Assembly: GCA_038501625.1 (NCBI GenBank)
Contig: JAZAYU010000003.1
Span: forward strand, 5,780,796-5,844,795
Length of the DNA stretch: 64,000 bases
Source of the DNA: Corbicula japonica
Lineage: Eukaryota; Mollusca; Bivalvia; Venerida; Cyrenidae
Direction: 5' to 3'
The notes under the pieces are model-generated. The model was not told the DNA's origin, ran no database searches, and saw only the letters and a list, made by a program, of their open reading frames with translations. The position numbers and the translations under genes are program-made. Each line of letters begins with the position of its first letter. Within the stretch, counting starts at the first letter, position 1. This document shows positions 2,851 to 61,815 of the stretch, piece after piece.

Positions 2851-4724
2851 CTATGCACAGTTTGAAAGTCGCGTCAGTACTTTGAACTGTTGTGATAACT
2901 CAATCAGCATCCAAATAGAGAAAAGAAGAAAATGAAGCGAAAGGATATGAAACTGAAAAATAATATATCAATTTTCAATCATCACCTTAAAACTGTCGAA
3001 CGTAACAAAAAAGTAACATATAAAAGAACCGGAGGGTTTACGCATTAGAATTCGTATAACTGCCTTGCCGCTGGCACCTCTAAATAAATTTGTCTGTGTA
3101 AAAGTCTTGCCTTGTCAAGAAATTAATCGCCGTATTATTACAAACTAATTACATGAATTTTTGCAACATTTCTTAGAATTTTAAGTTCATAAAGTTCGTT
3201 CATTATTTCACTATCAGAATGTTATCCAAATGTGGCACATAATATTATCAGTCTCTTACACTGCAGCATATCCTCGGGGATTCTCATCAGCTGATGACAA
3301 GACCATTTTAAGATAGTCGTTATTAACGAGTAAAAGAAGCAATCAGTTCAAACAATATTAGACCATGAGAAGTTCGCGAAATCGTCTGCTTCAAATTCAT
3401 ATCAAATTTTACTAGTCTAGATTTTTTTAATTAAGAAATAAGCCGTCTATGGTTATTGCAGAAATAATCCAAAGCCCAAAACAACAGAAATGTTTAACAG
3501 AACTCTTGCTGACTTGACTTTATTTTTACGTTTTATCAAACCGTAAGAAAAGTTGTTTTTACAAAAAAAAGCAACGAACAGTAACAGATTACGTTCCTTT
3601 CTTAAAAGTAAATATTTGCAAATCCGGCCGAAGAGACGTTTGTCAGAAGAATACTGGATTTTTTATTAGCAATATTGAATACAGTTGTTTCTGTCGCAAT
3701 TATTATCAAATACGGCCGTAATTAGCTTTATGTTATGTAATGTTATGTTATGTTATGTCAAAATTCTATTTCGTTATGTTTCGCTAATTGTTTTTTCGGT
3801 TGGGGCAAACCCGTTCATAGGGACCATGGAATGTTATAAATCCAAAAATACCGAAGGTAATGTGTTAAAAATTATATAAATAATTATTGCGAATTCATTT
3901 ACCAATAAAAATTCCTTTTATGTACCTGAAAACGCTTTTTTTTCCTTTGATTTTCCTTGAAATTTCTAATTTCAAAATTATTTGATGAAATAGTACTCTT
4001 TAATCATTTTCCTAGAAGTAATGGAAATAAGCAGCCGAACTTTTCATATAAAGGTAGAGAATGAAAGGCAGATCGAAATTCGAATTAATACTGATTAATT
4101 TCATTATTTACGCGATTTTATTGTGATCCCAAGATTTTTTTCAAGCCGGCTATTCTTAGTGTTTACAAAAGATTTTAACATTCCACAAACTACATTTACT
4201 TAAACAACTTACTTTATTTTCACGTTGCAGTTGTTGTATTTATTGATGGTATAAGATTGCTTGTACATTATGATAGTTGCTGTGATTAAGTTATAAATTT
4301 CCATTATTAATTACCTTAATAGAAATCATGAAATTAAAAAAAAAAGTCTAACCTCATTGTTACGTCATGGATAATAGGAGCTCTTAAACTCAAAGTTTCA
4401 CAGAGAATCTCTTGAAGTCAAAGATTTATTTATTAAAAAGCACACTCGCTTTGATCGGCACCAGCTCGAATTGGTTTCGAGTCTGTGCTTGATGTTAATT
4501 ATGAACTTTTGAAACTTCAAAATGTTTTACGCCGCATCACCCCGCAGGATTAGTAAGAAATCGCCATAACAAAACAAAGCAATGTAAACAGGGGGTTTTT
4601 ATTCTAGAGATTTCTAGAAATGAAATTTAAAAAAAACACCAGTAATAGTTATATCTCCTCATTTAAGATGTATTCGTTTAAAGCCAATTCTTTAAGCTCT
4701 CCATGATTTCCTTTGTTCTTGAAC
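2851..4724. other. Non-coding stretch with small repeats
   Basis: No gene is recognised. There is a short TTATG tandem run at about 3731-3757. A fragment at about 3795-3860 (GGGGCAAACCCGTTC, GGGACCATGGAATG, AAAATACCG) resembles part of the dispersed repeat at 41358 and 50101. Confidence 0.45.
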
Positions 4725-4726
4725 TA

Positions 4727-6151
4727 CACTGACACGATTTAAAAACGCAAAAGGCATTTTCATCAGCTATTCTGTTTCTGCAGCCTCGATCGGCACCATA
4801 TTTGGGGACATAAATGATACAATGTATACCCTTCACGCCCCACCAATTTTGTCGTGCCAAATGTAAACCTCTCGGGCATTTGAGCCGCCCTTCACAAAAT
4901 GCACGTGCGTCTCGTGCACTTAAACCACGCGGAAAATCAATGCGATTTTTTGTGTGTAAATTGGCACATTGATTTACTCTCTGAAAATCAAACACAAACT
5001 ACGGATATTTTTCGTTTGCAAAATGCCGAGGCTTACTTTTGCACAACGGAACCAAGCTTTGGGGCTTTTGGCCGGCGGGGCTACGCTAACAGAGGTAGCT
5101 AGACGGTTTAATGTCGCCGACTCGACGATTACAAGGTTAGTGACACGTGTAAGTGCTACTGGAACAACTGCAGACCGCCCACGCCCCGGACAGCCACGTG
5201 TAAGAAGTGTACGTCAAGACAATTATATACGGCAACGTCACTTACGCAACAGATTTGCGACGGCTCAGTCTACTGCAAATGCCATGGTTGGTAATCGTGG
5301 ACGGTCTATACATCGTGACACAGTGATAAATCGCCTGAGAGAACGTGGGATTCACTGTCGTCGTCCTGCGCGGTGCCAGGCTCTCACCCAACGTCATCGC
5401 CTTGAGAGACAACGTTGGGCTTTAAACAACCGCCGACGGCAGTGGGACAATGTCGTTTTCAGCGACGAGAACGCTTTGCAAACAATTGTGTACGTGAAGT
5501 GTACCCATACGGCGGTGGGGGCGTCATGGTCTCGGCAGCGATCAATACCAATTTTAAGTCTGACCTGGTTGTTTGTAACGGCAATTTGAATGCAAGACGG
5601 TATATCGACCAAATCCTTCGACCCCACGTCGTGTCCATCTTCCGTCAACGTCAGGGACTAACGTTTATGCATGACAATGCTCGTCCGCATACAGCAATAG
5701 TCACAAGACAGTTCTTACAGCAAAACAATGTCCCGGTGTTACAATGGCCGGCTCGTTCCCCTGATTGTTATCCAATTGAGCATATGTGGGACGAGCTCGG
5801 TCGTAGGTTACGTCAACGTCCTCAGGCCCCTTATACCGTCGACGAGTTGTCGCAGGCTCTCCTGGAGGAATGGAACAATATTCCAAGGCGCGTATACCGC
5901 AATTTGTGCACATCCATGACACGTAGAGTGCAGGCCGTGTTGAACAGTAACGGTGGTCATACGCGCTATTGACTCAACGTGCATTTAGGCACAATGAGAC
6001 GTCAGTCCAAGCAAAACTCAAGACTTAAAAGGTTATTTTCTTTTCTGTTATGTCTACACTAGTTAAGTACACAGTTATACATGGTTATACATCGGCTATG
6101 TGGAATATATCCTCTGTAAAAGTACTTTTGCGTTTTTAAATCGTGTCAGTT
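4727..6151 (+). mobile_element. Tc1/mariner (DD34E) DNA transposon, decayed
   Basis: The element is bounded by inverted repeats: ACTGACACGATTTAAAAACG at the left and its complement at 6131-6150, 26 bp matching in all. TA dinucleotides flank it at 4725-4726 and 6152-6153, the expected Tc1/mariner target duplication. It contains one transposase gene broken by an internal deletion. The length of about 1.4 kb is normal for the family. With a broken transposase this copy could move only if another copy supplied the enzyme. Confidence 0.93.
5023..5972 (+). pseudogene. Tc1-family transposase pseudogene
   Basis: This was a cut-and-paste transposase. The start is taken at MPRLTF (5023), after which an N-terminal helix-turn-helix (AEVARRF-like, TLTEVARRFNVADSTITRL) and a PRPGQPR linker follow. 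The catalytic domain shows FSDE, then HDNARPH, then PIEHMWDE, with exactly 34 residues between the second Asp and the Glu, which defines DD34E. The frame changes at about 5470: the first half reads through FSDEN and the second half resumes at RFANNC in another frame. The segment usual between these motifs (about 15-20 residues) is missing, so this is a deletion plus frameshift. The C-terminal half ends with a stop at 5970-5972. It cannot make a full enzyme. Confidence 0.92.
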
Positions 6152-26394: not shown

Positions 26395-27432
26395 AACCAG
26401 GAGAAATAAAAATACTTTGTTTAAATGTAGGTGGTATTCTTTCAAAACTTCGGATTCCTGAATTCATATCGTTTTTAAAAGAATATGATGTTATTGGTCT
26501 CCAGGAAACAAAAACTGATGACACCTATAGCTTACAAGTTGAAGGTTTCAAAGTGCATGTTTTAAACCGACAAATGTTATCCAGATATCGCCCCGGGGGT
26601 ATAGCTCTTTTAATCAGGAACGAGTCAGTGTAGATGCAAACTCAAAAAGGAAACTTATTCAATTTTTCACTATTTCAAAGCAAATTTATGGTAATGACAA
26701 TAGTAATCAAGACGATTTAAAGTGTGGAATTATTTATATACCACCCTCAGGTTCAAAATGTGCACACCCGGAACCTTTTTCGAAATACAAAATGAATTAT
26801 ATAGATATTGTTCAAATTGCAGTGATATTTTATAGTTTTGAGATTACAATGCTAGATGTGGTAATTTAGCTGATTTTGTTGAAGTTGACACTTTTTTATC
26901 TGATATGTATAATCTTCAATACGTCCAGGACGAAATGGTTGAAAGCTTAAGCGAGTTTAATATTTGTAATGTCCCAATTGTACGCCGTACTGCTGATAAT
27001 ACAGTTAATAACTATGGTCAACAATTGATTTATTAAAAATAATCTGTTATATTTCTTAAATGGAAGAATCGGACCAGATTTTGAAAAATCAAAACCTGCA
27101 TGCAGAAACGTAAGCACTGTAGACTATTTTGTTTCAAGTTCCGCCGTTTTTAAAAATGGCACAGATTTTTTTTGCGTTCATGATTTCTGTGATCTTTACT
27201 CAGACGTCCATTGCCCAATATTGTTAACACTGAAAAGCAAGTTTAACAAAAATACCACTCGGCAAAATTCTGAAAAAATATCAAGTATTAAAATATGGGA
27301 TCCAGATAAAAAGGAATTATATATCGAAAATTTTGACATTCTACGTTTGGTTGAAATCGAATCGAAATTAGATAGAATTACTGAAGAAAGAGTTTTTACA
27401 CAGTCTGCTATTGACGATATAGTAACCGACAT
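26395..27432 (+). pseudogene. LINE endonuclease (APE-type) domain, broken
   Basis: The APE-like endonuclease nicks target DNA for reverse transcription. Pieces in different frames show the order expected: KILCLNVGGI, YDVIGLQETK, GGIALLIRNE, DYNARCGN, GRIGPDFEKSKPACRN, VDYFV, and SDVHCPI near the end. At least three frameshifts or stops separate these pieces. The last open stretch (27221 onward) reads to VTDI, where the tyrosine-recombinase element begins. Confidence 0.87.
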
Positions 27433-27514
27433 TAGTAGTCACGAGACAAAGGTCATAACCTATTCTGCTACGTCATACAGCTGATGACGTAGCACTGCGT
27501 TCTTTGCTTGTTCA
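27433..27514 (+). repeat. Split direct repeat A1 (left end)
   Basis: 82 bp starting TAGTAGTCACGAGACAAAGG and ending TCTTTGCTTGTTCA. Identical to A2 at 31638-31719. It contains the near-palindrome TGCTACGTCATACAGCTGA-TGACGTAGCA, a possible recombinase or regulatory site. Confidence 0.95.
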
Positions 27515-27563
27515 CTCTGGGCGAGAGCACGCTTTTTCTTTACACGCCGTGTAAATTTTCTAT

Positions 27564-28313
27564 ATGGACGAAAAATTTGATAGATTTTGTGAGGACGTTA
27601 ATCACAGACTGTGTCAGTTGGAGTTAAAGGTTTCTGAGCGAACATATGTGTCAAATTCATCGCCGTTAGGGCCAAAATCGGATCGTTTTCCTGACAGCCA
27701 CGTGGAGCCGGTGGCCACCGGACACGCGCAGACTTGTGCCTCCGGTAGTGTTCATGATACCCAGGGGGATTTTCAGGCTTTGAAGGACTCTTTGGCACGT
27801 ATCAAACTGCCTCCCGAGTTGAGACTAAATGAATCCCGTCAAGGAATCAAGAAAGCAGACCAGCCTGTGTTGAACGTTTTAACACGATGCAGTAGATACA
27901 ACGAAACAGCAGTGCGTTTACTGTCTACTATTGAGGCAGGTCAGTCAATTACACAGGACACTTTAGATCAATTTATGGTAATTTTTAATGCGCAGTGCAA
28001 ATACCTGCAAGATGAATTCGCTGCTATTCTGGTCAATGGACAGTTTGATAGCTCAACGTCCAGGCTGTTTAGAGCTTTGCAACGCAACACGTCAGGTTTG
28101 AACCCGGAATCTCTAGATTCTTTACGCACAGCAGCTACGCTATCTGCAGCTGGTAGACCAGCTCGTGGATCCGGATCAATTCAGCAGTTTCGGGGTCGAG
28201 GACGAGGATCGTACGGCCGACAAGACGTGTTTCAGGGTTTTGCACAAAGGCAGTTTCCAAACAAGCGATTCAATAAGGATAACTACCACGCAACGGAGGA
28301 TAAGGACGAGTAG
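27564..28313 (+). CDS. Gag-like protein of the tyrosine-recombinase retrotransposon
   Basis: 249 residues, in the position where DIRS/PAT elements carry their nucleic-acid-binding structural protein. The first ATG (27564) lies 50 bp after A1. The N-terminal third is polar (MDEKFDRFCEDV). The middle is predicted helical with an LPPELRLNES motif and CSRYNETAVRLLST. The C-terminal 60 residues are rich in Arg, Gly and Gln (QFRGRGRGSYGRQ), typical of RNA binding. No CCHC knuckle is seen. It ends 82 bp before the RT frame. Assignment rests on position and composition, as these Gag proteins are poorly conserved. Confidence 0.75.
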   Translation: MDEKFDRFCEDVNHRLCQLELKVSERTYVSNSSPLGPKSDRFPDSHVEPVATGHAQTCASGSVHDTQGDFQALKDSLARIKLPPELRLNESRQGIKKADQPVLNVLTRCSRYNETAVRLLSTIEAGQSITQDTLDQFMVIFNAQCKYLQDEFAAILVNGQFDSSTSRLFRALQRNTSGLNPESLDSLRTAATLSAAGRPARGSGSIQQFRGRGRGSYGRQDVFQGFAQRQFPNKRFNKDNYHATEDKDE

Positions 28314-28395
28314 CAGTTGTTTCCCTTAGTGTGTTAAAACGTGTTTTAACAAGTAATCGAGTTTCTTCCCTTTTATCAGTGTTGTCAATTTATAC

Positions 28396-30261
28396 ATGTG
28401 TGTAAACAAATTAAAATCGTGTGTTGAGGCTTGGCACCAGATTCAAGCACCTGATTACGTGATTGAATGGATACAAAATGGAGTAAGCATTCCTTTTTCG
28501 TCTGATGTTGAATCATTTGAATTAGAAAACCATTCATTTAATTTTAAGCAGAGTTCATTTGTTAATTCAGAGATTGACAGACTTCTTCATTGTGGTTTTA
28601 TTGATATTTGTGGTGATAAACCACTGTGTGTAAGCCCCCTCGGCGTTGTACCAAAGAAGCGAGGGAAGCTTCGACTCATAACTGACTTACGAAGACTGAA
28701 TTCCCACTGTGACGTTCCAAAATACCGCAACGAGGATATTCGGGACACTGTGAAGTTACTTCAGCCAAGTGATTATTTTGTCAGTACAGACATAAGAGAC
28801 GGGTTCTTTCACATTCCAGTGCACAAAGATTTTCGTAAATATCTAGGTTTTAAATGGAACGGTATTTATTACTCTTGGAATGTTTTAGTTTTTGGCCTAT
28901 GTTGCTCACCATATTATTTCAACAAGATTGTTAGACCTGTAATTACTTATTTAAGATCTTTGGGGCTGCGTGTTACAGTTTTTGTGGATGATTTTCTTTT
29001 AGCAGCTCATATTTCATGTATAACTGATCACAAAGACTTGTTATTGCACACTTTACAGGATTTAGGTTTTTCTGTAAATTTTGAAAAATCTGTTTTGGTC
29101 CCTAGGCAATCTATAGGTTTTATTGGCTACACTATTTCTTCAGTAGGGTCAAAGTTGTTGGTTAAGGCACAGAGTCAGAGGGTGTCATCAGTAAAACACA
29201 CACTTAGACATATTTTAAAGCATCAGTCTGTGTCTGCCCGTACTCTGGCTAAAGCCTTGGGTAAATGTGTTTCGGTGGCCTGGGTAGTTTCCCCAGGTAA
29301 ATTATTTTTACGGAAATCATACAGGCTCCTAAGTTCTAGGTTATCTTGGGAGGATAAGCTTGTTTTGACTGCTGAGGTGACAGAGGAGTTACAGTGGTGG
29401 CTATCGTCTATTGATTATTGGAACGCTCGTGAAGTATGCGCAGAAATAATTCAGGCCCAGGTATTTACGGATGCCAGCGCACTGGGTTGGGGCGCGGTAT
29501 ACAACGGCAGAGTCGCGTCTGGGGACTGGAACAAACGCGTTTCATATCTGACATCAAACGAGAGAGAAATGTTAGCAATTTTAATGGCTTTGAAGGCTTT
29601 CGCGAGTCTGCTACAGGGTTTAACAGTTCAGTTTTTCACGGACAATATTACGGCCAGGGCTTATGTAAATCATATGGGAGGCCCGAGTCCCACCCTGTCT
29701 GCATTGGCTTTTGCAATATGGTCAGAGGCCACAGAGCTTGGGATCACGCTTCGTTGCGAACATATTGCGGGCGTCCAGAACGGTCAGGCAGATTACTGGT
29801 CGCGAACGCCAGACAAACACAATTGGATGCTACATCCCAGAGTTTTTCGGTACTTAGACCAGTTATATGGCAAACACACAATAGACAGATTTGCAAACTG
29901 CCAAAACACGCAGGTAGCTCGCTTCAACAGCCGTTACTGGGATCCTCTATCCGAGGGTGTCGATGCCCTTGCACAGGACAACTGGGGTTGCGAAAACAAC
30001 TATGTAAACCCCCCTTTTTGTCTAATACCTCGCGTTTTAGATGTTGTAGAAAAACAACAAGCACACGCTACACTTATCGCACCTGTCTGGAAAGCCCAGA
30101 CCTGGTTTCGTCGTCTGTTAAAAATGACAGTATCTCCACCACTGCAGCTCCCAAATTCTCACAATATATTTCGGGCAATGAGCGTGGCACTTCCGGAACC
30201 TCGTCGGAACCGAAAGTGGAAAATCTGTGCCTGGAGGATATATGGAGGGAAAATCTCTTAG
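28396..30261 (+). CDS. Reverse transcriptase / RNase H / methyltransferase-like polyprotein
   Basis: 621 residues, no break. Residues about 55-250 are the reverse transcriptase: PLGVVPKKRGKLRLITDLR, catalytic Asp132 in STDIRDGFF, and the FVDD box with Asp198-Asp199. Residues about 355-470 are RNase H, with Asp359 (FTDAS), Glu391 (NEREM), Asp416 (FTDN) and Asp466 (GQADYWSR) as the likely acid residues. Residues about 480-600 contain DRFA, QDNWGCENNYVNPPF (NPPF at 538-541) and APVWKAQTWF, which resembles the Dam-like adenine methyltransferase domain known from DIRS/PAT elements. No protease or integrase is present, as expected. The last 826 nt overlap the recombinase frame. The protein would copy the element's RNA into DNA. 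Confidence 0.93.
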   Translation: MCVNKLKSCVEAWHQIQAPDYVIEWIQNGVSIPFSSDVESFELENHSFNFKQSSFVNSEIDRLLHCGFIDICGDKPLCVSPLGVVPKKRGKLRLITDLRRLNSHCDVPKYRNEDIRDTVKLLQPSDYFVSTDIRDGFFHIPVHKDFRKYLGFKWNGIYYSWNVLVFGLCCSPYYFNKIVRPVITYLRSLGLRVTVFVDDFLLAAHISCITDHKDLLLHTLQDLGFSVNFEKSVLVPRQSIGFIGYTISSVGSKLLVKAQSQRVSSVKHTLRHILKHQSVSARTLAKALGKCVSVAWVVSPGKLFLRKSYRLLSSRLSWEDKLVLTAEVTEELQWWLSSIDYWNAREVCAEIIQAQVFTDASALGWGAVYNGRVASGDWNKRVSYLTSNEREMLAILMALKAFASLLQGLTVQFFTDNITARAYVNHMGGPSPTLSALAFAIWSEATELGITLRCEHIAGVQNGQADYWSRTPDKHNWMLHPRVFRYLDQLYGKHTIDRFANCQNTQVARFNSRYWDPLSEGVDALAQDNWGCENNYVNPPFCLIPRVLDVVEKQQAHATLIAPVWKAQTWFRRLLKMTVSPPLQLPNSHNIFRAMSVALPEPRRNRKWKICAWRIYGGKIS

Positions 30262-31247
30262 ATAAGGGATGGTCAAATGAACTAATTAATAGACTTGACT
30301 TTAGTTTGGCTAAAGGTACGTTTACTTCTTACAACAATGTTCTGGGTAAGCTGTATGTATTTTGTGCTGACAAAAAGTGCTTATTTCCACCTTCTGATAC
30401 TTGTTTATTAGCTGAATTCTTTTCAGACATTGCTAAGAGGTCAACTAGACCCAGTTCTGTGTTAAGAACATCGCTTGCTGCTATTGGGCATTTGTACAAA
30501 GCCAAAGAGCAGACTAATTTGGTTGAAGATCATTTTATTCGGCTATTTATTACAGGATTGGTCAAATCTGGGACCACTACCCCAATGACAAAATCAAAGG
30601 TAATGCCTATTAGGAACTTTAATGACATGTTCTCACTTTGGCCATGTAATCAAGACCTAGATGAGAAACGGTTAAGGTTAAAGTGCATAACCCTTTTAGC
30701 GTTGACTTTAATGCTTCGCCCTTCTGACATTGCTCCTAATGGTCGTATCTTTACTGCCGATGGGGACTCTAGCTTAATTGACTTCTCCACCGATCAGTTA
30801 CAGTTTTGTGAGGGTTATGCAAAAGTCACTTTCTTTGGGATTAAAAACGATACGTCTAGAACGGGTTTTGAGGTAGTTTTACCTGCAGGAAATAACTCTG
30901 ACCTTGACCCGGTAAGCTGTCTTAAATGTTACATCGAGCGCACCCAGAAGTATCGTGCTGCTGGGGGTCCTGTGTTTATTGGGCTTAAACATCCAAGAGG
31001 GGCTTTGAGGGCAGCGTCTATAGCCAAAATACTTGATGAGTCAATTGTGTTAGCTGGATTAGATGGTCAGGGTTATTCGGCTAAATCTTTTCGACCTACA
31101 GGAGCTACAACGGCTATTGCTGAAAATATAAATCCAGAGATAGTGCGTAAAGTCGGCCGTTGGAAAAGTTCAGAAGTCTTTTTCACACACTATGTGCATT
31201 CACAAACCCCTGCAGATTTCACTGACCTGGTGTTAGGACATGAATAG
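29436..31247 (+). CDS. Tyrosine recombinase of the retrotransposon
   Basis: Open frame of 603 codons, overlapping the RT frame in another register for 29436-30261. Recognisable recombinase starts near residue 265 (about 30228), so the first 260 codons may be mostly a shadow of the RT frame and the true start is unknown. From 275 to 380 lies a core-binding-like helical domain (GWSNELINRLDFSLAKGTFTSY). The catalytic domain shows Arg428 (LMLRPSDIA), Arg553 in KSFRPTGAT, Trp576 in GRWKSSE and the nucleophile Tyr586 (FFTHYVH). In the usual H-x-x-R box the His is replaced by Lys550. It would integrate the circular cDNA by recombination. Expression from an overlapping frame suggests internal initiation, a spliced RNA or frameshifting. 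Confidence 0.9.
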   Translation: MRRNNSGPGIYGCQRTGLGRGIQRQSRVWGLEQTRFISDIKRERNVSNFNGFEGFRESATGFNSSVFHGQYYGQGLCKSYGRPESHPVCIGFCNMVRGHRAWDHASLRTYCGRPERSGRLLVANARQTQLDATSQSFSVLRPVIWQTHNRQICKLPKHAGSSLQQPLLGSSIRGCRCPCTGQLGLRKQLCKPPFLSNTSRFRCCRKTTSTRYTYRTCLESPDLVSSSVKNDSISTTAAPKFSQYISGNERGTSGTSSEPKVENLCLEDIWRENLLDKGWSNELINRLDFSLAKGTFTSYNNVLGKLYVFCADKKCLFPPSDTCLLAEFFSDIAKRSTRPSSVLRTSLAAIGHLYKAKEQTNLVEDHFIRLFITGLVKSGTTTPMTKSKVMPIRNFNDMFSLWPCNQDLDEKRLRLKCITLLALTLMLRPSDIAPNGRIFTADGDSSLIDFSTDQLQFCEGYAKVTFFGIKNDTSRTGFEVVLPAGNNSDLDPVSCLKCYIERTQKYRAAGGPVFIGLKHPRGALRAASIAKILDESIVLAGLDGQGYSAKSFRPTGATTAIAENINPEIVRKVGRWKSSEVFFTHYVHSQTPADFTDLVLGHE

Positions 31248-31554
31248 GTGCAATGTTCTTACAGTACTTGTGTATGTGATTTGGATTATTCTGTAAGGCT
31301 ATAGGACATGAATATTTCAGAGATTTTAATAGGTCAGTCAGTATCTTGTAATACGGCCAGTTGATAACTGTATATATTGTCATTTTATTAGGTTTGTATT
31401 AGCCGTTTGCTTGTAAATATTTCGTTTCATATAGTAACAGTTAATGTTTAAATCTGTGCATATGCGGAGTTCTGTGAACCACCTTAAAGTCATTTGGTTT
31501 GTGTAGATAGATCTAATTTGTTTTTAAATGTCATTATAGGCAGACGTACTCATT

Positions 31555-31638
31555 AATATGGCATATGTGTTTTATTGTTAATTAAATAAAATTACACTAA
31601 AACTGTCCTTTGTCTTGGTGACGTATATTTAACAAAAT
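31555..31638 (+). repeat. Split direct repeat B1
   Basis: 84 bp from AATATGGCATATGTGTTTTA to TATTTAACAAAAT, identical to B2. Its last T is also the first T of A2. It contains AATAAA (AATTAAATAAAATTA), which may serve as the poly(A) signal. Confidence 0.95.
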
Positions 31639-31719
31639 AGTAGTCACGAGACAAAGGTCATAACCTATTCTGCTACGTCATACAGCTGATGACGTAGCAC
31701 TGCGTTCTTTGCTTGTTCA
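31638..31719 (+). repeat. Split direct repeat A2
   Basis: Identical to A1 over 82 bp. It directly follows B1, so this junction reproduces a joined right and left terminus. Confidence 0.95.
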
Positions 31720-31800
31720 GTTTCATGATGTTTAGTTAGTTGTTTGGTATGTCTGTTTGGTATATAAGTATGTATGTGTATATCGAGTGAACATGTAGAG

Positions 31801-31884
31801 AATATGGCATATGTGTTTTATTGTTAATTAAATAAAATTACACTAAAACTGTCCTTTGTCTTGGTGACGTATATTTAACAAAAT
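31801..31884 (+). repeat. Split direct repeat B2 (right end)
   Basis: Identical to B1 over 84 bp. Immediately after it (GGAATTTTGTTCGCC) the interrupted LINE resumes. Confidence 0.95.
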
Positions 31885-34200
31885 GGAATTTTGTTCGCCG
31901 AAAATTCTAAAGAAACTTTTGGTATGGTGCTTCGGACGAACCATAAGCCAAAACATAATAATAAATAAATAAATAAATAAAAATAATAAAGATTGTTATC
32001 GAATGAGGAACGTATACCATAAAACACGCAAATTATATAACAAATATAAAACGGAATATAACAAAGAACGCTTAAAGGAAGTAAGCAAAAAATACAAAGA
32101 AACGCTGCGTATCTCAAATAAAAACTTTAACTTAAATCGAATAAATGAACGTCGAAATCTAAAGCATGCAGACCCAAGACAATATTGGAAGATAATTAAC
32201 ACTGATTCTAGTAAATCGTCATATAGTGCAAATCTTGATGACTTTTACACATTCTTTAAAAACGTTAATGAAACACAAGTAAACGAAACCGAAACGGACG
32301 ACTTAAATTTATATTTAAATAACATGGAAAACGAAGAAATTAACAAAGAAATAAGCGAACAAGAAATATTAAAAGCGTCAAATTCTCTTAAAAATAACGA
32401 ATCGCCAGGTTGTGATAATATCGTAAATGAGCAAATTAAAGCAACTTTACATTATATGTTACCTATTTACAAGAAATTGTTTAACAGTACCTGAATGTTG
32501 GACAGTAGGCATCATTAAACCAATATATAAAAACAAAAGGGACCCCAAATTACCTGAAAACTACAGACCGATTTCATTACTTAGTTGTTTTGAAAAATTA
32601 TTTACGAGTTTTAAACAACAGACTTACAGCATGGGCGGATAAGGTTATCTTATTTCACATAATCAATCGCAATTTAGGAAAAATCATTCAACCGTTGACA
32701 ATTTATTTATTTTAAAAGTTTAATAGACATTGTGCATTTTGACAAGAAAAAAAATATTCTGCTGCTTTGTTGATTTTAAACAATGTTTTGACTCAATTTG
32801 GAGGATCGGATTATGAAAAAAAATTGTTAAATGAAAAGATAAACGGAAAATGTTTCAATATTATTAAAAGCATGTACAATAATATAAAATCGAAAATTCA
32901 AACAAGTGAGGGCAGCACCCCATTTTTAACTGTGTAAACGGTGTGAGACAAGGTGAGAATTTATCACCCTTTTTATTTAGCATATACTTAAATGACCTTG
33001 AATATTTCTTAAGGGACAGAAATATTAAAGGTATAAAAAAACATGAAATTGTTTATAATGCACATTTGTATTTTAAACTTTTGATATTGCTGTATGCAGA
33101 CGATACTGTTATTTTTAGCGATAATAAAACTAATATGCAGAACGCATTCAATTCTTTTAAACATTATTGTGACATTTGGAAATCAACAGTAAATGTTGAC
33201 AAAACAAAAAATATTATTTTTAGTAAAGGGAGAATATCCCAAAACAGAAACTTCAAAATAGGCACAGAAAATATTGAAACAATAACCGAGTACAAATATT
33301 TAGGTGTTTACTTTTCTAGAACAGGTTCTTTCACAAAAACGAAAAAATATTTAGCAGAACAAGCAAACAAGGCCATGTTTTCTCTCCTCAGAAAGATAAA
33401 CAACCTCTCGTTGTCGTACGATATACAAATAGATCTTTTCGAAAAAACAATAAAGCCTATTTTATTATACGGATGTGAAATTTGGGGGTTTGGAAATATT
33501 GATATTTTAGAACGAGTTCAACTGAAATTTTATAAATACATTTTTGGGTTAAATAAGTCAACACCAACTCATATGATTTATGGCGAGTTAGGTGTAATGC
33601 CAATAAATATAGAAATTAAGAAGCGAGTGATATCGTTTTGGACAAAAATTGCTGATAATACAGAAGATACTAATACAAAATTAGCACACAATGTTTACGA
33701 ATTTATTTTCAATCTTCATATGAAAAACAACGTAAAGTCAGAATGGATTAATAATGTTAAAACAATTTTGTGTTTACACGGATACTCAGGAGTGTGGTAT
33801 AGTCAAAGTTTTTATAAACAGGAAATGGCTTATAAAAAGTATTCATAGAAAATTGCAAGATAGTTTTATTCAAAGTTGGATGTCTGAAATAAATCGTAGT
33901 TCAAATAATTTATATAAAACGTATAAAACAGAGTTCAAACAAAGTAAATATATATATCAGTCTTACCCAGTTATCTCAGTAAATCGATGATGGCATTTTT
34001 TTACAAGAAATCACCATTTGCCCATTGAACTGGGAAGATGGAGAGGTATTCCTCTTAACGAAAGAAAATGTAATTATTGTGGAGATTTAGGAGACGAATT
34101 TCATTATATATTACAATGTAATCACTTTAATACCTTAAGATAAAAATTGTCAAACCCTTTTATTATAGGAGGCCGAATACACAGAAACTTAACAATCTTT
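31885..34200 (+). pseudogene. LINE reverse transcriptase and C-terminal region, broken
   Basis: This continues the LINE split at 27432. A linker (FAENSKETFGMVLRTN) leads into an AAAT microsatellite at about 31953-31985 that has disrupted the frame. RT blocks follow: NNESPGCDNI, VGIIKPIYKNK, LPENYRPISLLSCFEKL, DFKQCFDSIW (32770s), NGVRQGENLSPFLFSIYLN (32943 onward) and LLYADDTV, the catalytic box. The longest open piece, 32943-33848, runs on to LLYGCEIWGFGN and GELGVMPINIE. Near 34060-34130 a C-x2-C-x8-H-x4-C motif (CNYCGD to LQCN) is a zinc-knuckle-like end. Several stops and shifts (32494, 32640s, 33848) make it non-functional. RT blocks and APE endonuclease are clear; the clade is not assigned. 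Confidence 0.9.
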
Positions 34201-38469: not shown

Positions 38470-40689
38470 TCATTTCATAATTATACTTTCAAAGAATCTG
38501 ATCCCAAACAATGCAATATATGGGCGCCATCTTGTTTCTCCGACTTGTTGGAGCGCTCGTTGGATTCGTTCGTCCCTTGAACAACAGTGTAGGTCAAGAT
38601 ACTTCATTATTGATAATTTGTCTTTATTTAAATCAACGTCCACCTCTAGTATTCTAGCTACTGAATCTTCAAATGTCAAAATTTCCATTTTAAACCTTCT
38701 TTCGTCGGTATGATCTAAAAATGTAAGAACCATTCCGTATTGTCCTTTGAGTTTTATTATGTCTCCCGCTTTTATTATGCTTTGTTGGTGAACTTCAATT
38801 TCTCTTACAAAAAAGGAACTCTTATGTTTTGTATTTGACTCCTCGGTAATGTCGTCATCCTGAGCAATATTGATGGTATTTTGTTCGTCATTTATTTTAG
38901 CAAACAACGCTACATGCCTGGAAGCATTTGTAAAAGGATTCCATTTAGTCTCACCTTTTCTCATTCTGGCACGCCCAACAACTTCTTTAGGTGAATATGT
39001 TTTCAAGTTGTATTCATTTAGTTTTACTATCTTTTCGGTTTTTGTATTGACATTCATATATTCTTCATGAACTGTTCGTGTTCCATATACGTTTCCACTT
39101 GGTATTCCATAATGAACGCATTTTATTCGTCCTAGTGTTTCGGCAAAAATAAAAAGGGGTCACTTCTGTCACAACAACTTCGTGCGGCGATCCCCAGTAT
39201 TTAAGTTTCAGTACGTCACCAATGACTATATTTTTAACTTTGTGAATTGGTATTTTTCTACAGGTGAACTGGGATTTAAAATTACCATAACGTTAGAGAA
39301 CTCCCATTGAAATGCTAAGGCCAAAACAGCCACAATTACTTTAATGGGCGTACCCGGAGATGGAGTAAGTAGTGGAAGTGCAATGTTAAGCAAAATGTAC
39401 GAGAGACCATTGCTAGAAAGAAAAATTCCAAATTTGGCCCAGAGTGTTATCATATCGTTTTTGAAACAAGACTCACACAATTTCTTTTTTGTCTTTCTTT
39501 TGTTACTTTTGTATGTTTTGTATATGCAGAATAGCAAGTACATAATGGATGTACCGCTCAACACTAAGGAAGGAGTAATCTGTAGCTTAAACGGTCCTGG
39601 ACCTACAATTGCCACAATTTCATCGGCCGAATTAACCAGGAAACGCCTAACATTCTTAAATACTGTGGACCCTGTCCCAGTTGCTTGAGATAACCACTCA
39701 CTGATAGATGCACAAATTCCATCGACCTGAAAGCTCTGACCGCCACCTACTACGCACCAAGTTGCAAAATGTTCGCAGTTGTATCCGAAAAGGTTGTATG
39801 ATTTTACTTTTTCTTATTTTGCTTCTCTTTCGAAGTCACTGGTTTTTCGTGGCGAACATATTTCTCCGAGTTATTTCCCGGACATGAATATTCAGTATCA
39901 TCGATACCCTTACTTGATTCTGCGAGTCGCACGATTACCTCAGATTTGATTCTTGAAATTGAATCAGTCCAATCCTCACCAACAGTAGTCGTCTTTGTAT
40001 CTCGCTTATCTTTTGAAAGTTTTGATTCTGCACGTTTTACGATTTCGTCAGGGGTGTATCAAGGGAGCCTATATTCGATTATATCGATCTCGTCCTTCTC
40101 GAGATCAATAGTTCGGTTTGTTTCCTCAATACAGTATCCTGTTTCAGATTGATTAAAGTGAAACAAAGCAAGTATTGCTTTTTTATGATTAGCTTCTATA
40201 ACATCCTTTATAATGGCATGGTGTGAATATAATCGAACAATCCTTTTACCTAAATTAAAAGTTAAATATTGCCCTGGCATTCTTATGTGTTGTCCTTTTT
40301 GAAAAGACAATGCGTTTTCGACTCTTTTATTAAAAGAACATGTTGCACATGCGACGCTGTCTGGAACACATGTTGATTCAAATTCTTCTCCGAGTGCTTC
40401 TTCAAATTTTTTAAAGGCGTCTTCATCGTTTTCTGGGTCACTAACTTTTAACAGCCGGTGGAGTTCTTTGCAACCATATTTATTTCTTAATGATACTGAT
40501 ATTTCGGAAAGCAATTCTTCTGGGCGTAAATCATCGTCACTTTCACTTCCGCTCGAATCGTTATTCTCGTGGGCGATATGATGTACGTTATTCAATGTTT
40601 TGGAAAGATCATAACTGTCAAGGTACTGTTCTTTTTCCGAAAAAAAAATCTTTTCTCAGCTTGACTCTTGGTGGGAACTTATAAGCCAT
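38470..40689 (-). pseudogene. LRAT-domain membrane protein, pseudogene paralogous to the gene at 59510-61594
   Basis: Read on the minus strand from ATG at 40689 (MAYKFPP), this follows the intact gene nearly end to end. Open pieces are 40595-40059 (acidic N-terminus, ACATCSFNKRVE, then KGQHIRMPGQYLTF), a middle piece with YNCEHFATWCVVGG, 39615-39226 (membrane block) and 39057-38470 (repeats 2 and 3, ending FFESI). Breaks: a frameshift near 40640 in a run of A/T, an in-frame TGA at about 40050 where the intact copy has CGA (CpG-type change), a shift near 39810, one near 39240 and one near 39150. The region before the Cys motif has about 50 extra residues with a second R-x-AES motif. It probably arose by gene duplication and then died. 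Confidence 0.9.
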
Positions 40690-45231: not shown

Positions 45232-47440
45232 TCAAGCGCCACTCAACGGCCTTTTCAATCAATCATGGTCAACGCCAAAAAACGGCACGACCTTTTCAAT
45301 CAGTCATGGTCAACGCCACAAAACGGCACGACCTTTTCAATCGATCATGGTCAACACCACAAAATGGTAGGAATCCATAATCAATCAAACAATTTATTTC
45401 AATCAAATCAATCCATATAATTAATTCAGTAAGGTCAATCAATTCAATCAAGTTAATGAGTTCAATTAAAAGTTAATCACTTCGACCAATACATTAAAAT
45501 ACTGAGCAGTTTGTAGTCCTTCTAGACTGTTAAATCAGAAACGACATGACTTTTACAATTAATCAACTTTCCATCAACATTATTTTAGAACAAATTATTT
45601 AATATCATCTTGTCAATGAATAACGTGATTATAATCAAACCCCAAAACAGCACGAACTTGTTCTATTAAATACTAGTTTCTTTAGTTATGTTAAAGTTAT
45701 AAGCAATAAGAGACTAAGTAAAATAAAAAAGAAACAGTACTTATTCTCATCCAATAACGCTAAATCTCTTTTGAATACTCTTTACCATCTCGTAGACTAC
45801 CGACGCGGTTTTAAACAACTTTTGAGAAACATTTAGCTGTCTGTTTTCCATGTTTTTTTCTGAAATGAAACACAATATGTAAAATCTTTGTAACAGTATT
45901 TAAAAGAGACAATAGCCAACGCTACAAAACAGCACAGCCTGTCTCTAAAGGTCAACGCCAAACAACGGCACAACCTTGTTCAATCATAGTCAAGCGCCAC
46001 TCAACGGCCTTTTCAATCAATCATGGTCAACGCCACAAAACGGCACGACCTTTTCAATCAGTCATGGTCAACGCCACAAAACGGCACGACCTTTTCAATC
46101 GATCATGGTCAACACCACAAAATGGTATGAATCCATAATCAATCAAACAATTCATTTCAATCAATTCAATCTATACAATCAATTCAAAAGTCAATCTGTT
46201 CAATCAAGTTAATAAATTCAACAATCACTTCAATCAATCCATTCAAAAATGTACAGTTTGAGTTCCCTCTAGGCTGTTAAATCAAAAACGACATGACTTT
46301 AACAAGTATTCAACATTCCAAAGACCATATTTCAGAATAAATTATTCAATATTATCTTGTCTATGAATTACGTGATTATAACAAAACCCCAAAACAGCAC
46401 AAACTTGTTCTATTAAATACTAGTTTCTTAAGTTATGTTAAAATTATTAGCAATAAAGGACTATGTAAAATAAAAAAGACACAGTACTTATTCTTATCCA
46501 ATGACGCTAAATCTCTTTCGAATACTCTTTACCATCTCGTAGACTACTATCACGGTTTTAACAACTTCTGCAAAACCTTTAGATGTCTGTTTTCCATGTT
46601 ATTTTCTGAAATGAAACACAATATGTAAAAACTTTGTAACAGTATTAAAAAGAGACAATAGCCATCACCACAAAACAGCACAGCCCGTCTCTGAAAGGTC
46701 AACGCCAAAAAACGGCACAACCTTGTTCAATCAATCATAGTCAAGTGCCACTCAACGGCCTTTTCAACCAATCATGGTCAACGCCAAAAAACGGCACGAC
46801 CTTTTCAATCAATCAAGGTCAACGCCACAAAACACCACGACCTTTTCAATCGATCATGGTCAAAGCCACAAAACAGCACGATCTTTTCAATCGATCATGG
46901 TCAACGCCACAGAATGGCATGAATCCACAATCAAATCAAATCAATCAAATAAATAAGTCAATAAATCAAGTCAAATCAATCAAGTCAATAGTTGCATTCA
47001 GTTCAATGAAGTCAATCTATTCAATGGAGTTTATTCAATCAATCAATTTCATTAAGCCAATCAATATATTCAAAATTTTGCTGTCTCTCCAGAATGTTAC
47101 ATCAAAAAGCGCCACGACCATTACTGTAACAATAATTTTACATTCAATCAACAAAATTCAGAGCAAATTATTCAATATAATCTATAGTCTAAAAAAGTAT
47201 GAAAACTTTTCGATTTTGATCAAAACCAAAACCAACCTGGCCATTCCTTTAAGTAATCGGTTTCCTAAATTATGTAAAAATTATAAGCAATTAGATGTGT
47301 ACAGTAAGACAAACAAGGTACTTATCTAAAATGATTCAAAATGCTCCTTTCGAGTATTCTTTACCATCTCGAAACGACTTCCTTTAAAACTTCTGGAAAA
47401 CATTTAGTTTTCCGCTTGCCATGATAAAGATTTTTGGACG

Positions 47441-59509: not shown

Positions 59510-61594
59510 CTACTTTTCTTCAACTTGACTGTTATTTTCAACAATACTTTCAAAAAATCCAGCTTTTGTAAGAAAAAATCTTCTTTTCCCTATTTCCTTG
59601 CGCGCGCGTTGAACCCGTTCTCTCATGGAATAACAACGTGTTTCGAGATATTTCTGGATAAATATTCTATCGTTGTTCAAATTAACTGAAATCGTTGAGG
59701 TGCTTGAAAAAAAGTTTTTATATAACAGAACCTCGATTTCAAAGCATCTTTTGTTGATCGAATCCTCATCAGAGACTTCAAGCACCATACATGTTCTGTT
59801 ATTCAATTTTATGATATGTCCAGGCCGAATCTGGTCTCGATGGTGAACTTCACTCTCTCCAACAAAAAGTGAACTTTTGTGTTGTGATGATAATTGCCCG
59901 ATAGCATCGGATTTGGCATCTGGACGAGAACTATCACTTTTCGTGTCATCTTCCTTTACTTTAGCAAAGAATGCTAGGTGTTCTGATCTGTTCGTCAATG
60001 GGTTCCATTTGGTTTCACCGTTTCTTAGTCTTGCACGTTGAACAACTTCCTCTGGTTTGTAAGTTTTTAAAACACTATCGTCCAGTTTTACAATCTTTTC
60101 TTTCTTTGTATCTACAATCATATACTCTTCCACAATTTGCCGTGTTCCGTATATTTTTCCATTAGGTATTCCATAATGAACACATCGTATGCGACCTTGT
60201 GTTTCATCATAAACAGTATTGTGTACCTCTGTCACAACAACTGCATGTTTCAATCCCCAGTACTTTACTTCAAGAACATCACCAACTTCAATTTCGCTTA
60301 TTTTGAGCACTGTTTTTTTCTCACATACAAACGGAGATTTTAAGTAATCAATGAGCTTCGAAATCCCCCACTGTAATGCAAGAGACAGAAAAACCAGGAC
60401 TATCATTATCGGTATACCGTAACCAGGTACAAGCAATGGAATAGCAAAGTGCACCAAAATGTACGACAGACCAGAGGTGGTTAAAAATGCTGCGCATTGA
60501 GCCCATAGTTTTGTCATTTTGTTTTTGAAACAGGTATTACACAAACTTTTGTTTTTCTTTTTTATGCTTACTATTGTTTCCCCAATGCAGTAGATTAAAT
60601 ACAACAATGCTGTTGCACATGCAAAAACACCGGGGAGGTGTAACCCCGCGTTGAATCCAGTGGCTATCTCATCAGCGGAATTTAAAAGTAAGCGCACAAT
60701 AAACCTTGTAACAGTGGCACCCATTCCTGTTAGGTTAGAAAACCATTTACCTACTGATCTAAAGAACCCTTGCACCTGAAAACTTTCGCTTTCACCTACC
60801 ACACACCAAGTGGCAAAATGTTCGCAGTTTTTGGAAAACAGGTAATACTTTCCAAATTTGTTTTGATCTTCGTAATCTTTTGAAAGCATCGATTCGGCGC
60901 GCCGTACAATTTCTTCAGGGTTGTGTCTAGGGCGTTGATATTCTATAACATCGATATCGTCCTTGTTCAGATCAATTATTTCAGTACTTTCATAGATTTT
61001 CATTTTATCGTCAACTTTATGAAAATGAATCAAAACAAGTTCAGCTCTATTAAGACAAGTCCCCTTAACTTCTTTAATAATTGCATGATGTGAATACACA
61101 CGAACCTGTTTCTTGAGCATAGTAAATGTTAGATGCTGTCCTGGCATTCTTATGTGTTGTCCTTTTCGAAAAAGGGTAGTTGATTCCACCCGTTTCTTTC
61201 TGGAACATGTTGCACATGCTACTTCATCATGGTGTTGCTCACTTTTTATTTCTTGTTCATGTCCAAAGTCATTATTCTCCAGCACTTCGTTGAAGGTTTT
61301 CAAAGCTGTTTCGTCATCGACTGGTTTACTTACTTCGGAGAGCTTATTTTGCAGCGTACTACCATATTCATTTCGCAATACTGTGGTTATTTTGGAAAGG
61401 AATTCTTCAGAACTTATTTCATCTTCATGATCACTGTAGTCAGAATCGTCGGTTTCTTTCTTGTTTTCCAATGACTGAACTTCTTCTGCAAATGTTTTCT
61501 GATCATCACACTTCTGAAATAAATCTTCATCCTCCGAGACCTCCGACAAAGAAACGGGTCTTTGCTTGTTCACCGGTAGATATTTGTAAGCCAT
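59510..61594 (-). CDS. LRAT-domain membrane protein with one intact and two degenerate LRAT-like repeats
   Basis: 694 residues in one exon. LRAT/HRASLS enzymes are NlpC/P60-fold thiol acyltransferases or phospholipases acting on lipids at membranes. Residues 1-125 are acidic and low-complexity, then ACATCSRKKR. Repeat 1 (about 145-268) has the opening GQHIRMPGQHLTF, His169/His170 (SHHAIIKEV), His190 and the Cys motif NCEHFATWC (Cys257), so it could be active. Residues about 320-410 hold three hydrophobic segments. Repeat 2 (about 431-547) keeps the His (KHAVVVTEVH, VHYG), but the Cys is Ser537 (NRSEH). Repeat 3 (about 582-682) has lost the His and the Cys. The start at 61594 (MAYKYLPV) is chosen because the pseudogene at 40689 begins MAYK and an acceptor-like TATTTTTCAG lies 10 bp upstream. 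An upstream ATG at 61714 is open but probably intronic. Confidence 0.9.
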   Translation of the reverse strand: MAYKYLPVNKQRPVSLSEVSEDEDLFQKCDDQKTFAEEVQSLENKKETDDSDYSDHEDEISSEEFLSKITTVLRNEYGSTLQNKLSEVSKPVDDETALKTFNEVLENNDFGHEQEIKSEQHHDEVACATCSRKKRVESTTLFRKGQHIRMPGQHLTFTMLKKQVRVYSHHAIIKEVKGTCLNRAELVLIHFHKVDDKMKIYESTEIIDLNKDDIDVIEYQRPRHNPEEIVRRAESMLSKDYEDQNKFGKYYLFSKNCEHFATWCVVGESESFQVQGFFRSVGKWFSNLTGMGATVTRFIVRLLLNSADEIATGFNAGLHLPGVFACATALLYLIYCIGETIVSIKKKNKSLCNTCFKNKMTKLWAQCAAFLTTSGLSYILVHFAIPLLVPGYGIPIMIVLVFLSLALQWGISKLIDYLKSPFVCEKKTVLKISEIEVGDVLEVKYWGLKHAVVVTEVHNTVYDETQGRIRCVHYGIPNGKIYGTRQIVEEYMIVDTKKEKIVKLDDSVLKTYKPEEVVQRARLRNGETKWNPLTNRSEHLAFFAKVKEDDTKSDSSRPDAKSDAIGQLSSQHKSSLFVGESEVHHRDQIRPGHIIKLNNRTCMVLEVSDEDSINKRCFEIEVLLYKNFFSSTSTISVNLNNDRIFIQKYLETRCYSMRERVQRARKEIGKRRFFLTKAGFFESIVENNSQVEEK

Positions 61595-61606
61595 AATCTT
61601 CCATCT
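61595..61606 (-). promoter_or_regulatory. Putative 3' splice acceptor just upstream of the LRAT start
   Basis: On the minus strand GATGTATTTTTCAG ends at 61605, followed by ATGGAAGATT and then the start codon. A 5' UTR intron ending here would remove the upstream in-frame codons. Confidence 0.5.
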
Positions 61607-61815
61607 GAAAAATACATCATGCGTTCCATTTATTAAGAATAATTTGTCTTTTAAAAACGCAAAATACCGATTAATGATTGCTTTGTTCACCTCTTTGTTA
61701 GTATGACGTGACACCTGTTTAAGATATCATTAAGATTATAAACGGAAATATTGAAAAATATCGTAGAAGCTCAATTTGTACCTTTTATGTTTGTTGATTT
61801 AACTCGACGTGATTT

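What the first reader, a model, noticed from the sequence alone, without database searches (positions are those of the whole stretch)
27433..31884. Young, apparently intact tyrosine-recombinase retrotransposon with split direct repeats and a methyltransferase-like domain
All three frames are open, and the repeats A1/A2 (82 bp) and B1/B2 (84 bp) are identical. The B1-A2 junction shares one T and equals the joined element ends, the arrangement expected from a circular intermediate. There is no target duplication. Combining PAT-style split direct repeats, an NPPF methyltransferase-like motif and this ORF order in a mollusc-like genome is worth classifying. Repeat identity suggests recent movement.
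Basis: partly seen in the sequence, partly recalled or inferred. Interest (0 to 1): 0.78.

Follow-up and report, generated by a model that had tools for sequence, protein, structure and literature searches.

The report
Young PAT-like jumping element in mollusc
A recently moved, apparently complete jumping gene of the uncommon PAT-like kind, which copies itself through RNA and inserts with a recombinase, sits inside an older mobile element of a mollusc-like genome; it is a good specimen of a known kind rather than a new kind.

Summary
A1/A2 (82 bp) and B1/B2 are identical; between them lie gag, a reverse transcriptase-RNase H-methyltransferase ORF and a same-strand tyrosine recombinase. The 1.07-Gb genome gave nine further close loci: one complete, one lacking its last ~120 bp, three cut at 1.8-2.1 kb, one internally deleted, two solo A2-spacer-B2 copies and one apparently permuted copy opened at the inner B1|A2 junction, which fits a circular intermediate. 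Left ends are fixed and the base after the right end varies, so T31884 is best read as host and the element as 4451 bp. In the pol tree, split-direct-repeat elements of this genome form one group (100/99), apart from its inverted-repeat DIRS1-like elements. It is PAT-like; the gag zinc finger of Pat1 was not found in 39 gag proteins, and 121 relatives' recombinases have K or R where the DIRS1-like ones examined have H. The methyltransferase folds most like PCIF1, slightly ahead of Dim1/KsgA, but is Dam-like by sequence. PAT-like elements are already reported in molluscs: new member of a known kind.

The parts
27433..27514 (+). A1, left terminal split direct repeat; starts TAGTAGTCACGAGACAAA; holds an 11-bp palindrome (27466-27494)
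   Evidence: 82/82 to A2; exact left end in 10 of 10 close copies, window included; RNA fold of 27433-27575 z -3.1
27564..28313 (+). gag-like ORF, 249 aa, RG-rich tail, no zinc finger found
   Evidence: relatives in Dreissena polymorpha and Holothuria; zinc-finger pattern in 0 of 39
28396..30261 (+). pol ORF: RT (28648-29136), RNase H (29458-29655), methyltransferase (about 29797-30258, NPPF at 30007-30018)
30216..31247 (+). tyrosine recombinase domain (frame open from 29433, overlapping pol); conserved R, K, K in place of the usual H (31083-31085), R, W, Y (31191-31193)
31555..31637 (+). B1, inner copy of the right repeat (83 bp)
31638..31719 (+). A2, inner copy of the left repeat; the B1|A2 junction equals the joined element ends
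31609..31655 (.). imperfect inverted arms TTTGTCTTGGTGAC (31609-31622) and GTCACGAGACAAA (31643-31655) on either side of the B1|A2 junction; candidate recombinase binding arms (inferred)
   Evidence: also present in the diverged copy L013
31720..31800 (+). spacer between A2 and B2 (81 bp)
31801..31883 (+). B2, right terminal repeat (83 bp); T31884 best read as host base
27029..27432 (+). left part of the host LINE-like ORF interrupted by the insertion
31884..33848 (+). right part of the interrupted LINE-like element, with an RT domain in 32910-33845

Best explanation
A young, structurally complete PAT-like tyrosine-recombinase retrotransposon (order DIRS) in an animal, mollusc-like genome. Proposed cycle: the RNA is reverse transcribed by the RT/RNase H; the inner B1-A2 copy serves as the template that bridges the two ends (model for split direct repeats, recalled; its existence is mentioned in PMC6681497), giving a circle with a B2|A1 junction; the recombinase acts at a B|A junction flanked by inverted arms and inserts the circle at an apparently unspecific site without duplicating it. 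Shown: anatomy, copies, fixed left end, no visible target duplication, grouping. Inferred: circle formation, recombinase action at the B|A junction, and that the methyltransferase acts on the element's own nucleic acid.
For: Repeats identical; domains; close copies at different sites; same anatomy in a diverged copy and a second family; one group in pol and recombinase trees; an apparently permuted copy (C57) that begins with A2-spacer and ends in body-B1 between unrelated flanks, as expected if a circle opened at the inner junction; Cre-like fold of the recombinase; distinct pol variants in five copies against the window are 7 silent and 4 replacing, p = 0.004.
Against: No transcript, circle or transposition data. 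No ATG near the recombinase start. The permuted copy is also internally deleted with 203 bp of foreign filler, so a two-event origin is possible. Distinct recombinase variants show no purifying signal (2 silent, 5 replacing), nor do gag variants on their own (3 and 3, p = 0.14). The inner junction's inverted arms lie asymmetrically about the join. No named PAT, Ngaro or Repbase sequence could be put in the trees.
Confidence: 0.9

Rival explanations
1. It is a Ngaro-like element that has split direct repeats by descent.
For: Ngaro also has A-pol-B-A-B repeats (PMC3783388 passages); Ngaro and DIRS types are reported in bivalves (PMC10294476, one passage).
Against: A methyltransferase domain is present, which Ngaro lacks by definition (PMC3266345, PMC4157794); pol matches methyltransferase-bearing DIRS1-like elements at 30-35%.
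Confidence: 0.04
2. It is a DIRS1-like element whose inverted repeats were rearranged into direct ones.
For: RT, RNase H and methyltransferase are 26-39% identical to DIRS1-like elements in the same genome; some published trees do not separate the two kinds cleanly (PMC6681497, PMC4157794 passages).
Against: 5 split-repeat rows group together (100/99) apart from 8 inverted-repeat rows; recombinases share only 16-21% and differ at the catalytic H.
Confidence: 0.05
3. The near-identical copies were made by recent segmental duplication or gene conversion, and the element no longer moves.
For: Only one other complete copy was found (C112), and its pol carries frame-shifting insertions; 4 of 10 copies lack the right end.
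Against: The left end is exact against unrelated flanks in 10 of 10 copies; silent changes dominate in pol.
Confidence: 0.06

Closest known systems
PAT-like retrotransposons (Pat1-like, echinoderm form; reported in Lottia gigantea)
   Same: gag, RT-RNase H-methyltransferase, same-strand recombinase; A1 at the left, B1-A2-B2 downstream of the recombinase (PMC4157794 section 7)
   Different: No zinc finger found in gag, here or in 38 listed relatives, some of them partial; Pat1-like elements are described with one
Toc3 (algal PAT)
   Same: Split direct repeats, methyltransferase, gag without zinc finger, recombinase not inverted (PMC4157794 section 7)
   Different: Toc3 was found in algae; this group has animal members (Dreissena, Holothuria, Amphiura). 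Sequence relation not testable here
DIRS1-like elements in the same genome
   Same: RT, RNase H and methyltransferase homologous, 26-39% identical
   Different: Inverted repeats; recombinase 16-21% identical with catalytic H
Ngaro / VIPER
   Same: Split direct repeats and recombinase (PMC4157794, PMC6681497 passages)
   Different: No methyltransferase by definition
PCIF1/CAPAM cap adenosine methyltransferase

Membership tests
PAT-like (order DIRS) | Split direct repeats A1 / B1-A2-B2 | tested here: met
PAT-like (order DIRS) | Methyltransferase domain in pol | tested here: met
   Pfam Dam 28.2 bits against cut-off 28.1 for whole pol, 32.2 for the domain alone; methyltransferase fold
PAT-like (order DIRS) | Tyrosine recombinase in place of integrase | tested here: met
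   Cre-like fold, best E 4.9e-11; Pfam Phage_integrase below cut-off, 20.8 of 27.1 bits
PAT-like (order DIRS) | RT groups with PAT references | not testable with these tools
   No named PAT sequence was available; grouped with split-repeat elements by anatomy only
Pat1-like, echinoderm form | Zinc finger in gag | tested here: not met
   0 of 39 gag proteins match the one pattern used
Pat1-like, echinoderm form | Internal repeats downstream of the recombinase | tested here: met
   B1-A2 at 31555-31719, recombinase ends 31247
DIRS1-like | Inverted terminal repeats with internal complementary region | tested here: not met
   (its only inverted pair is internal, 21 nt, 76%); contrast
Ngaro | No methyltransferase domain | tested here: not met
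   domain present
VIPER | No methyltransferase domain | tested here: not met
   domain present
PCIF1 methyltransferases | Match to the PCIF1 family model or fold | tested here: inconclusive

The most novel reading that the evidence does not exclude
The methyltransferase domain carried by PAT-like and DIRS1-like elements and the eukaryote-only mRNA-cap enzyme PCIF1 share a direct ancestor, and in this split-repeat group, where an NPPF-type motif is often kept, the enzyme still methylates adenine in the element's own RNA or cDNA.
Probability: 0.12. Interest if true: 0.7.

Novelty: new member of a known kind. Interest (0 to 1): 0.36.

Why it matters
It gives a complete, recent PAT-like element with several near-identical insertions in one genome, including solo and apparently permuted copies that make the circular-intermediate model testable across junctions. 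The group also offers two testable enzyme questions: a recombinase with K or R at the usual H, and a methyltransferase whose nearest solved fold is PCIF1, an enzyme described as without prokaryotic homologues (PMC8868631, passages).

Tried and rejected
Relatives in viral contigs: two scans, pol and recombinase alignment, confirmed none. Rfam at gathering thresholds and tRNA scan of the window: 0 matches. Bacterial-type promoter/terminator scan of 27400-27600: not informative for an animal. PDB sequence search with the methyltransferase domain: 0 matches at E <= 10; with the profile of alignment A3 the best 60 of 238 shown were RT-type matches. NCBIfam: one weak phage N6A methyltransferase hit far below cut-off for pol, none for the recombinase or for L049's pol. 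Right-truncated copies as a sign of an oriented mechanism: 4 of 10 copies lack the right end and 0 of 10 the left, but four events are too few and a search with the right end did not complete. T after the right end: 8 of 13 in two families, p = 0.03 at T = 0.33, not pressed. Recombinase exchange between groups: identity drops more in the recombinase (16-21%) than in RT (26-33%), suggestive only. Empty site from other LINE copies: not checked, because the genome search with the flank did not complete; in the part's output that was shown, among fetched loci the left flank hit only loci that overlap the window itself and the right flank hit only parts of L037.

Papers: PMC3266345, PMC6681497, PMC10294476, PMC5633606, PMC5890265, PMC3783388 and PMC8868631 were seen as passages; PMC4157794 as passages and section 7. 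All other papers: search listing only. The bridging role of B1-A2 in detail and the tolerance of tyrosine recombinases for K at the H position are recalled.

Full report
What is there. The window carries two pairs of identical direct repeats, 82 bp and 84 bp, around three open frames on one strand. Pfam finds RVT_1 (3.8e-22), RT_RNaseH (1.1e-5) and Dam methyltransferase (1.7e-6, 28.2 bits against a cut-off of 28.1) in the middle ORF, and a sub-threshold Phage_integrase match (3.7e-4) in the last. Structure models back both weak calls: the recombinase (mean pLDDT 91) matches Cre-loxP structures best (E 4.9e-11), and the methyltransferase domain (mean pLDDT 95) matches adenosine methyltransferases.

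Copies. The window lies in a genome of 1,069,688,145 bases in 1630 contigs. Besides the window, nine close loci were found with a pol probe and a left-end probe, fetched and aligned. C112 is complete (4456 aligned bases, 99.7%), with frame-shifting insertions in pol. C31 (99.4%) stops inside the spacer at element position 4331. C68, C132 and C460 keep the exact left end and stop at positions 2146, 1943 and 1796. C6 keeps positions 1-438 and the last 31 bp. C74 and C119 are solo A2-spacer-B2 copies, the latter with a 27-bp deletion. C57 begins with A2 and 37 bp of spacer, continues with 203 bp of other sequence and ends with body 3408-4205 and B1 (99.1% there). A further locus, C16, is a diverged relative (63-69% over the aligned coding stretches) with the same layout and broken frames. 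Another hit, C12, matches only part of A at 76% and was not counted. A search with the right-end probe did not complete, so copies without any A repeat, gag or the probed part of pol would have been missed.

Ends and target. All 10 close copies, the window included, begin exactly at TAGTAGTC after unrelated flanks. Six of 10 have an exact right end; four are cut short. In the second split-repeat family the left end keeps its junction base C in 6 of 6 left ends seen and the base after the right end varies. The simplest reading is that the junction base belongs to the left end, that the base after the right end is host sequence, and that nothing is duplicated. Keeping one T lets the interrupted LINE frame run on as ...IVTDIGILFAENSKETFGM..., but no other LINE copy was available to confirm it.

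Mechanism. The B1|A2 junction and the element's joined ends are the same 165 bp, with imperfect inverted arms around the join that are also present in C16. This fits a circle whose B|A junction is the recombinase site. Such a circle holds two equivalent junctions, so some insertions should be permuted. C57 has that arrangement, though its internal deletion leaves a two-event origin possible. Solo copies fit recombination between A1 and A2, by the host or by the recombinase. Circles of DIRS-1 have been reported experimentally in a Dictyostelium mutant (PMC5633606, passages).

Classification. Searching the genome with pol gave 72 matches from 70 scored of 2229 first-look candidates, so counts are lower bounds. 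Among the 23 loci L034-L056 examined for repeats, direct repeats were seen in L034-L041 (8), inverted repeats in L045-L056 (12), and neither in L042-L044 (3); L042 proved inverted once two flanking stretches were fetched. In the pol tree of 38 rows the 5 split-repeat rows lie on one side of a 100/99 branch and the 8 inverted-repeat rows on one side of another; L043 was labelled inverted by its 99.8% identity to L042, and several rows are near-copies of each other. The recombinase tree of 24 rows splits likewise at 100/100, over very long branches. The few relatives that carry an organism's name in the lists include Amphiura and Holothuria (recombinase), Amphibalanus and, farther off, Pleurodeles (pol), Dreissena and Holothuria (gag); most rows have no name. 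Lists showed the best 120 of 190 pol and 120 of 370 recombinase matches, and all 38 gag matches.

Differences from the published PAT scheme. No gag zinc finger in 39 of 39 proteins (window and 38 relatives, some partial, one identical to the window's) by one pattern. The residue at the usual catalytic H is K in 117 and R in 4 of 121 recombinases (window and the 120 listed), and H in all 7 inverted-repeat recombinases put in the tree (several are near-copies). In pol, the motif position begins with N in 89 of 121 rows and has no letters in 10; it reads NPPF in 38, NAPF in 28 and NPPW in 14, so a full motif is common but not universal. Whether named PAT elements share the K could not be tested.

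Methyltransferase. By fold, PCIF1/CAPAM chains rank 1-4 in Foldseek (E 3.0e-3 to 3.6e-3, none below 0.001) and 1-6 by Z (11.5-10.4), with human Dim1 next at 10.1 and KsgA at 9.8, so the lead is small. By sequence the domain is Dam-like (30 of 49 rows) rather than PCIF1-like (2 of 49); the DIRS1-like L042 and L045 also show PCIF1 matches below cut-off. PCIF1 is described as eukaryote-only with an NPPF motif (PMC8868631, passages). No paper in the held library had PCIF1, retrotransposon and DIRS together; the domain has long been called Dam-like (PMC3783388, PMC5890265, passages). A common origin with PCIF1 is possible and untested.

Novelty. PAT-like elements are reported from Lottia (PMC3266345, PMC4157794, passages) and DIRS and Ngaro types from bivalves (PMC10294476, one passage). 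This is a new, well-preserved member of a known kind.

Noticed in passing
window 4960-5972 (+): Two overlapping ORFs that read like a frameshifted Tc1/mariner-type transposase (by eye, no search made).
   Followed up: no
window 38470-40655 (-) and 59510-61726 (-): Two related protein-coding stretches sharing NCEHFATWCVVG motifs, which recall LRAT-like domains; possibly a local duplication (by eye).
   Followed up: no
window 45246-46911: A 41-bp tandem repeat in three arrays (45246-45364, 45950-46122, 46697-46911).
   Followed up: no
window 27466-27494 and L034 around 560-590: Palindromes with TGACGT cores (CRE-like, recalled) in the A repeat of both split-repeat families; could be a promoter element or a hairpin.
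   Followed up: partly
protein lists: For many relatives the longest contig is 4.0-4.7 kb, about one element; circles or collapsed repeats could give this.
   Followed up: no
L048-L053 and L056 (C46, C163, C3, C44, C70, C1335, C223): A DIRS1-like family with inverted repeats and several nearly identical copies, 99.7-99.8% in the two pairs compared, also recent.
   Followed up: partly
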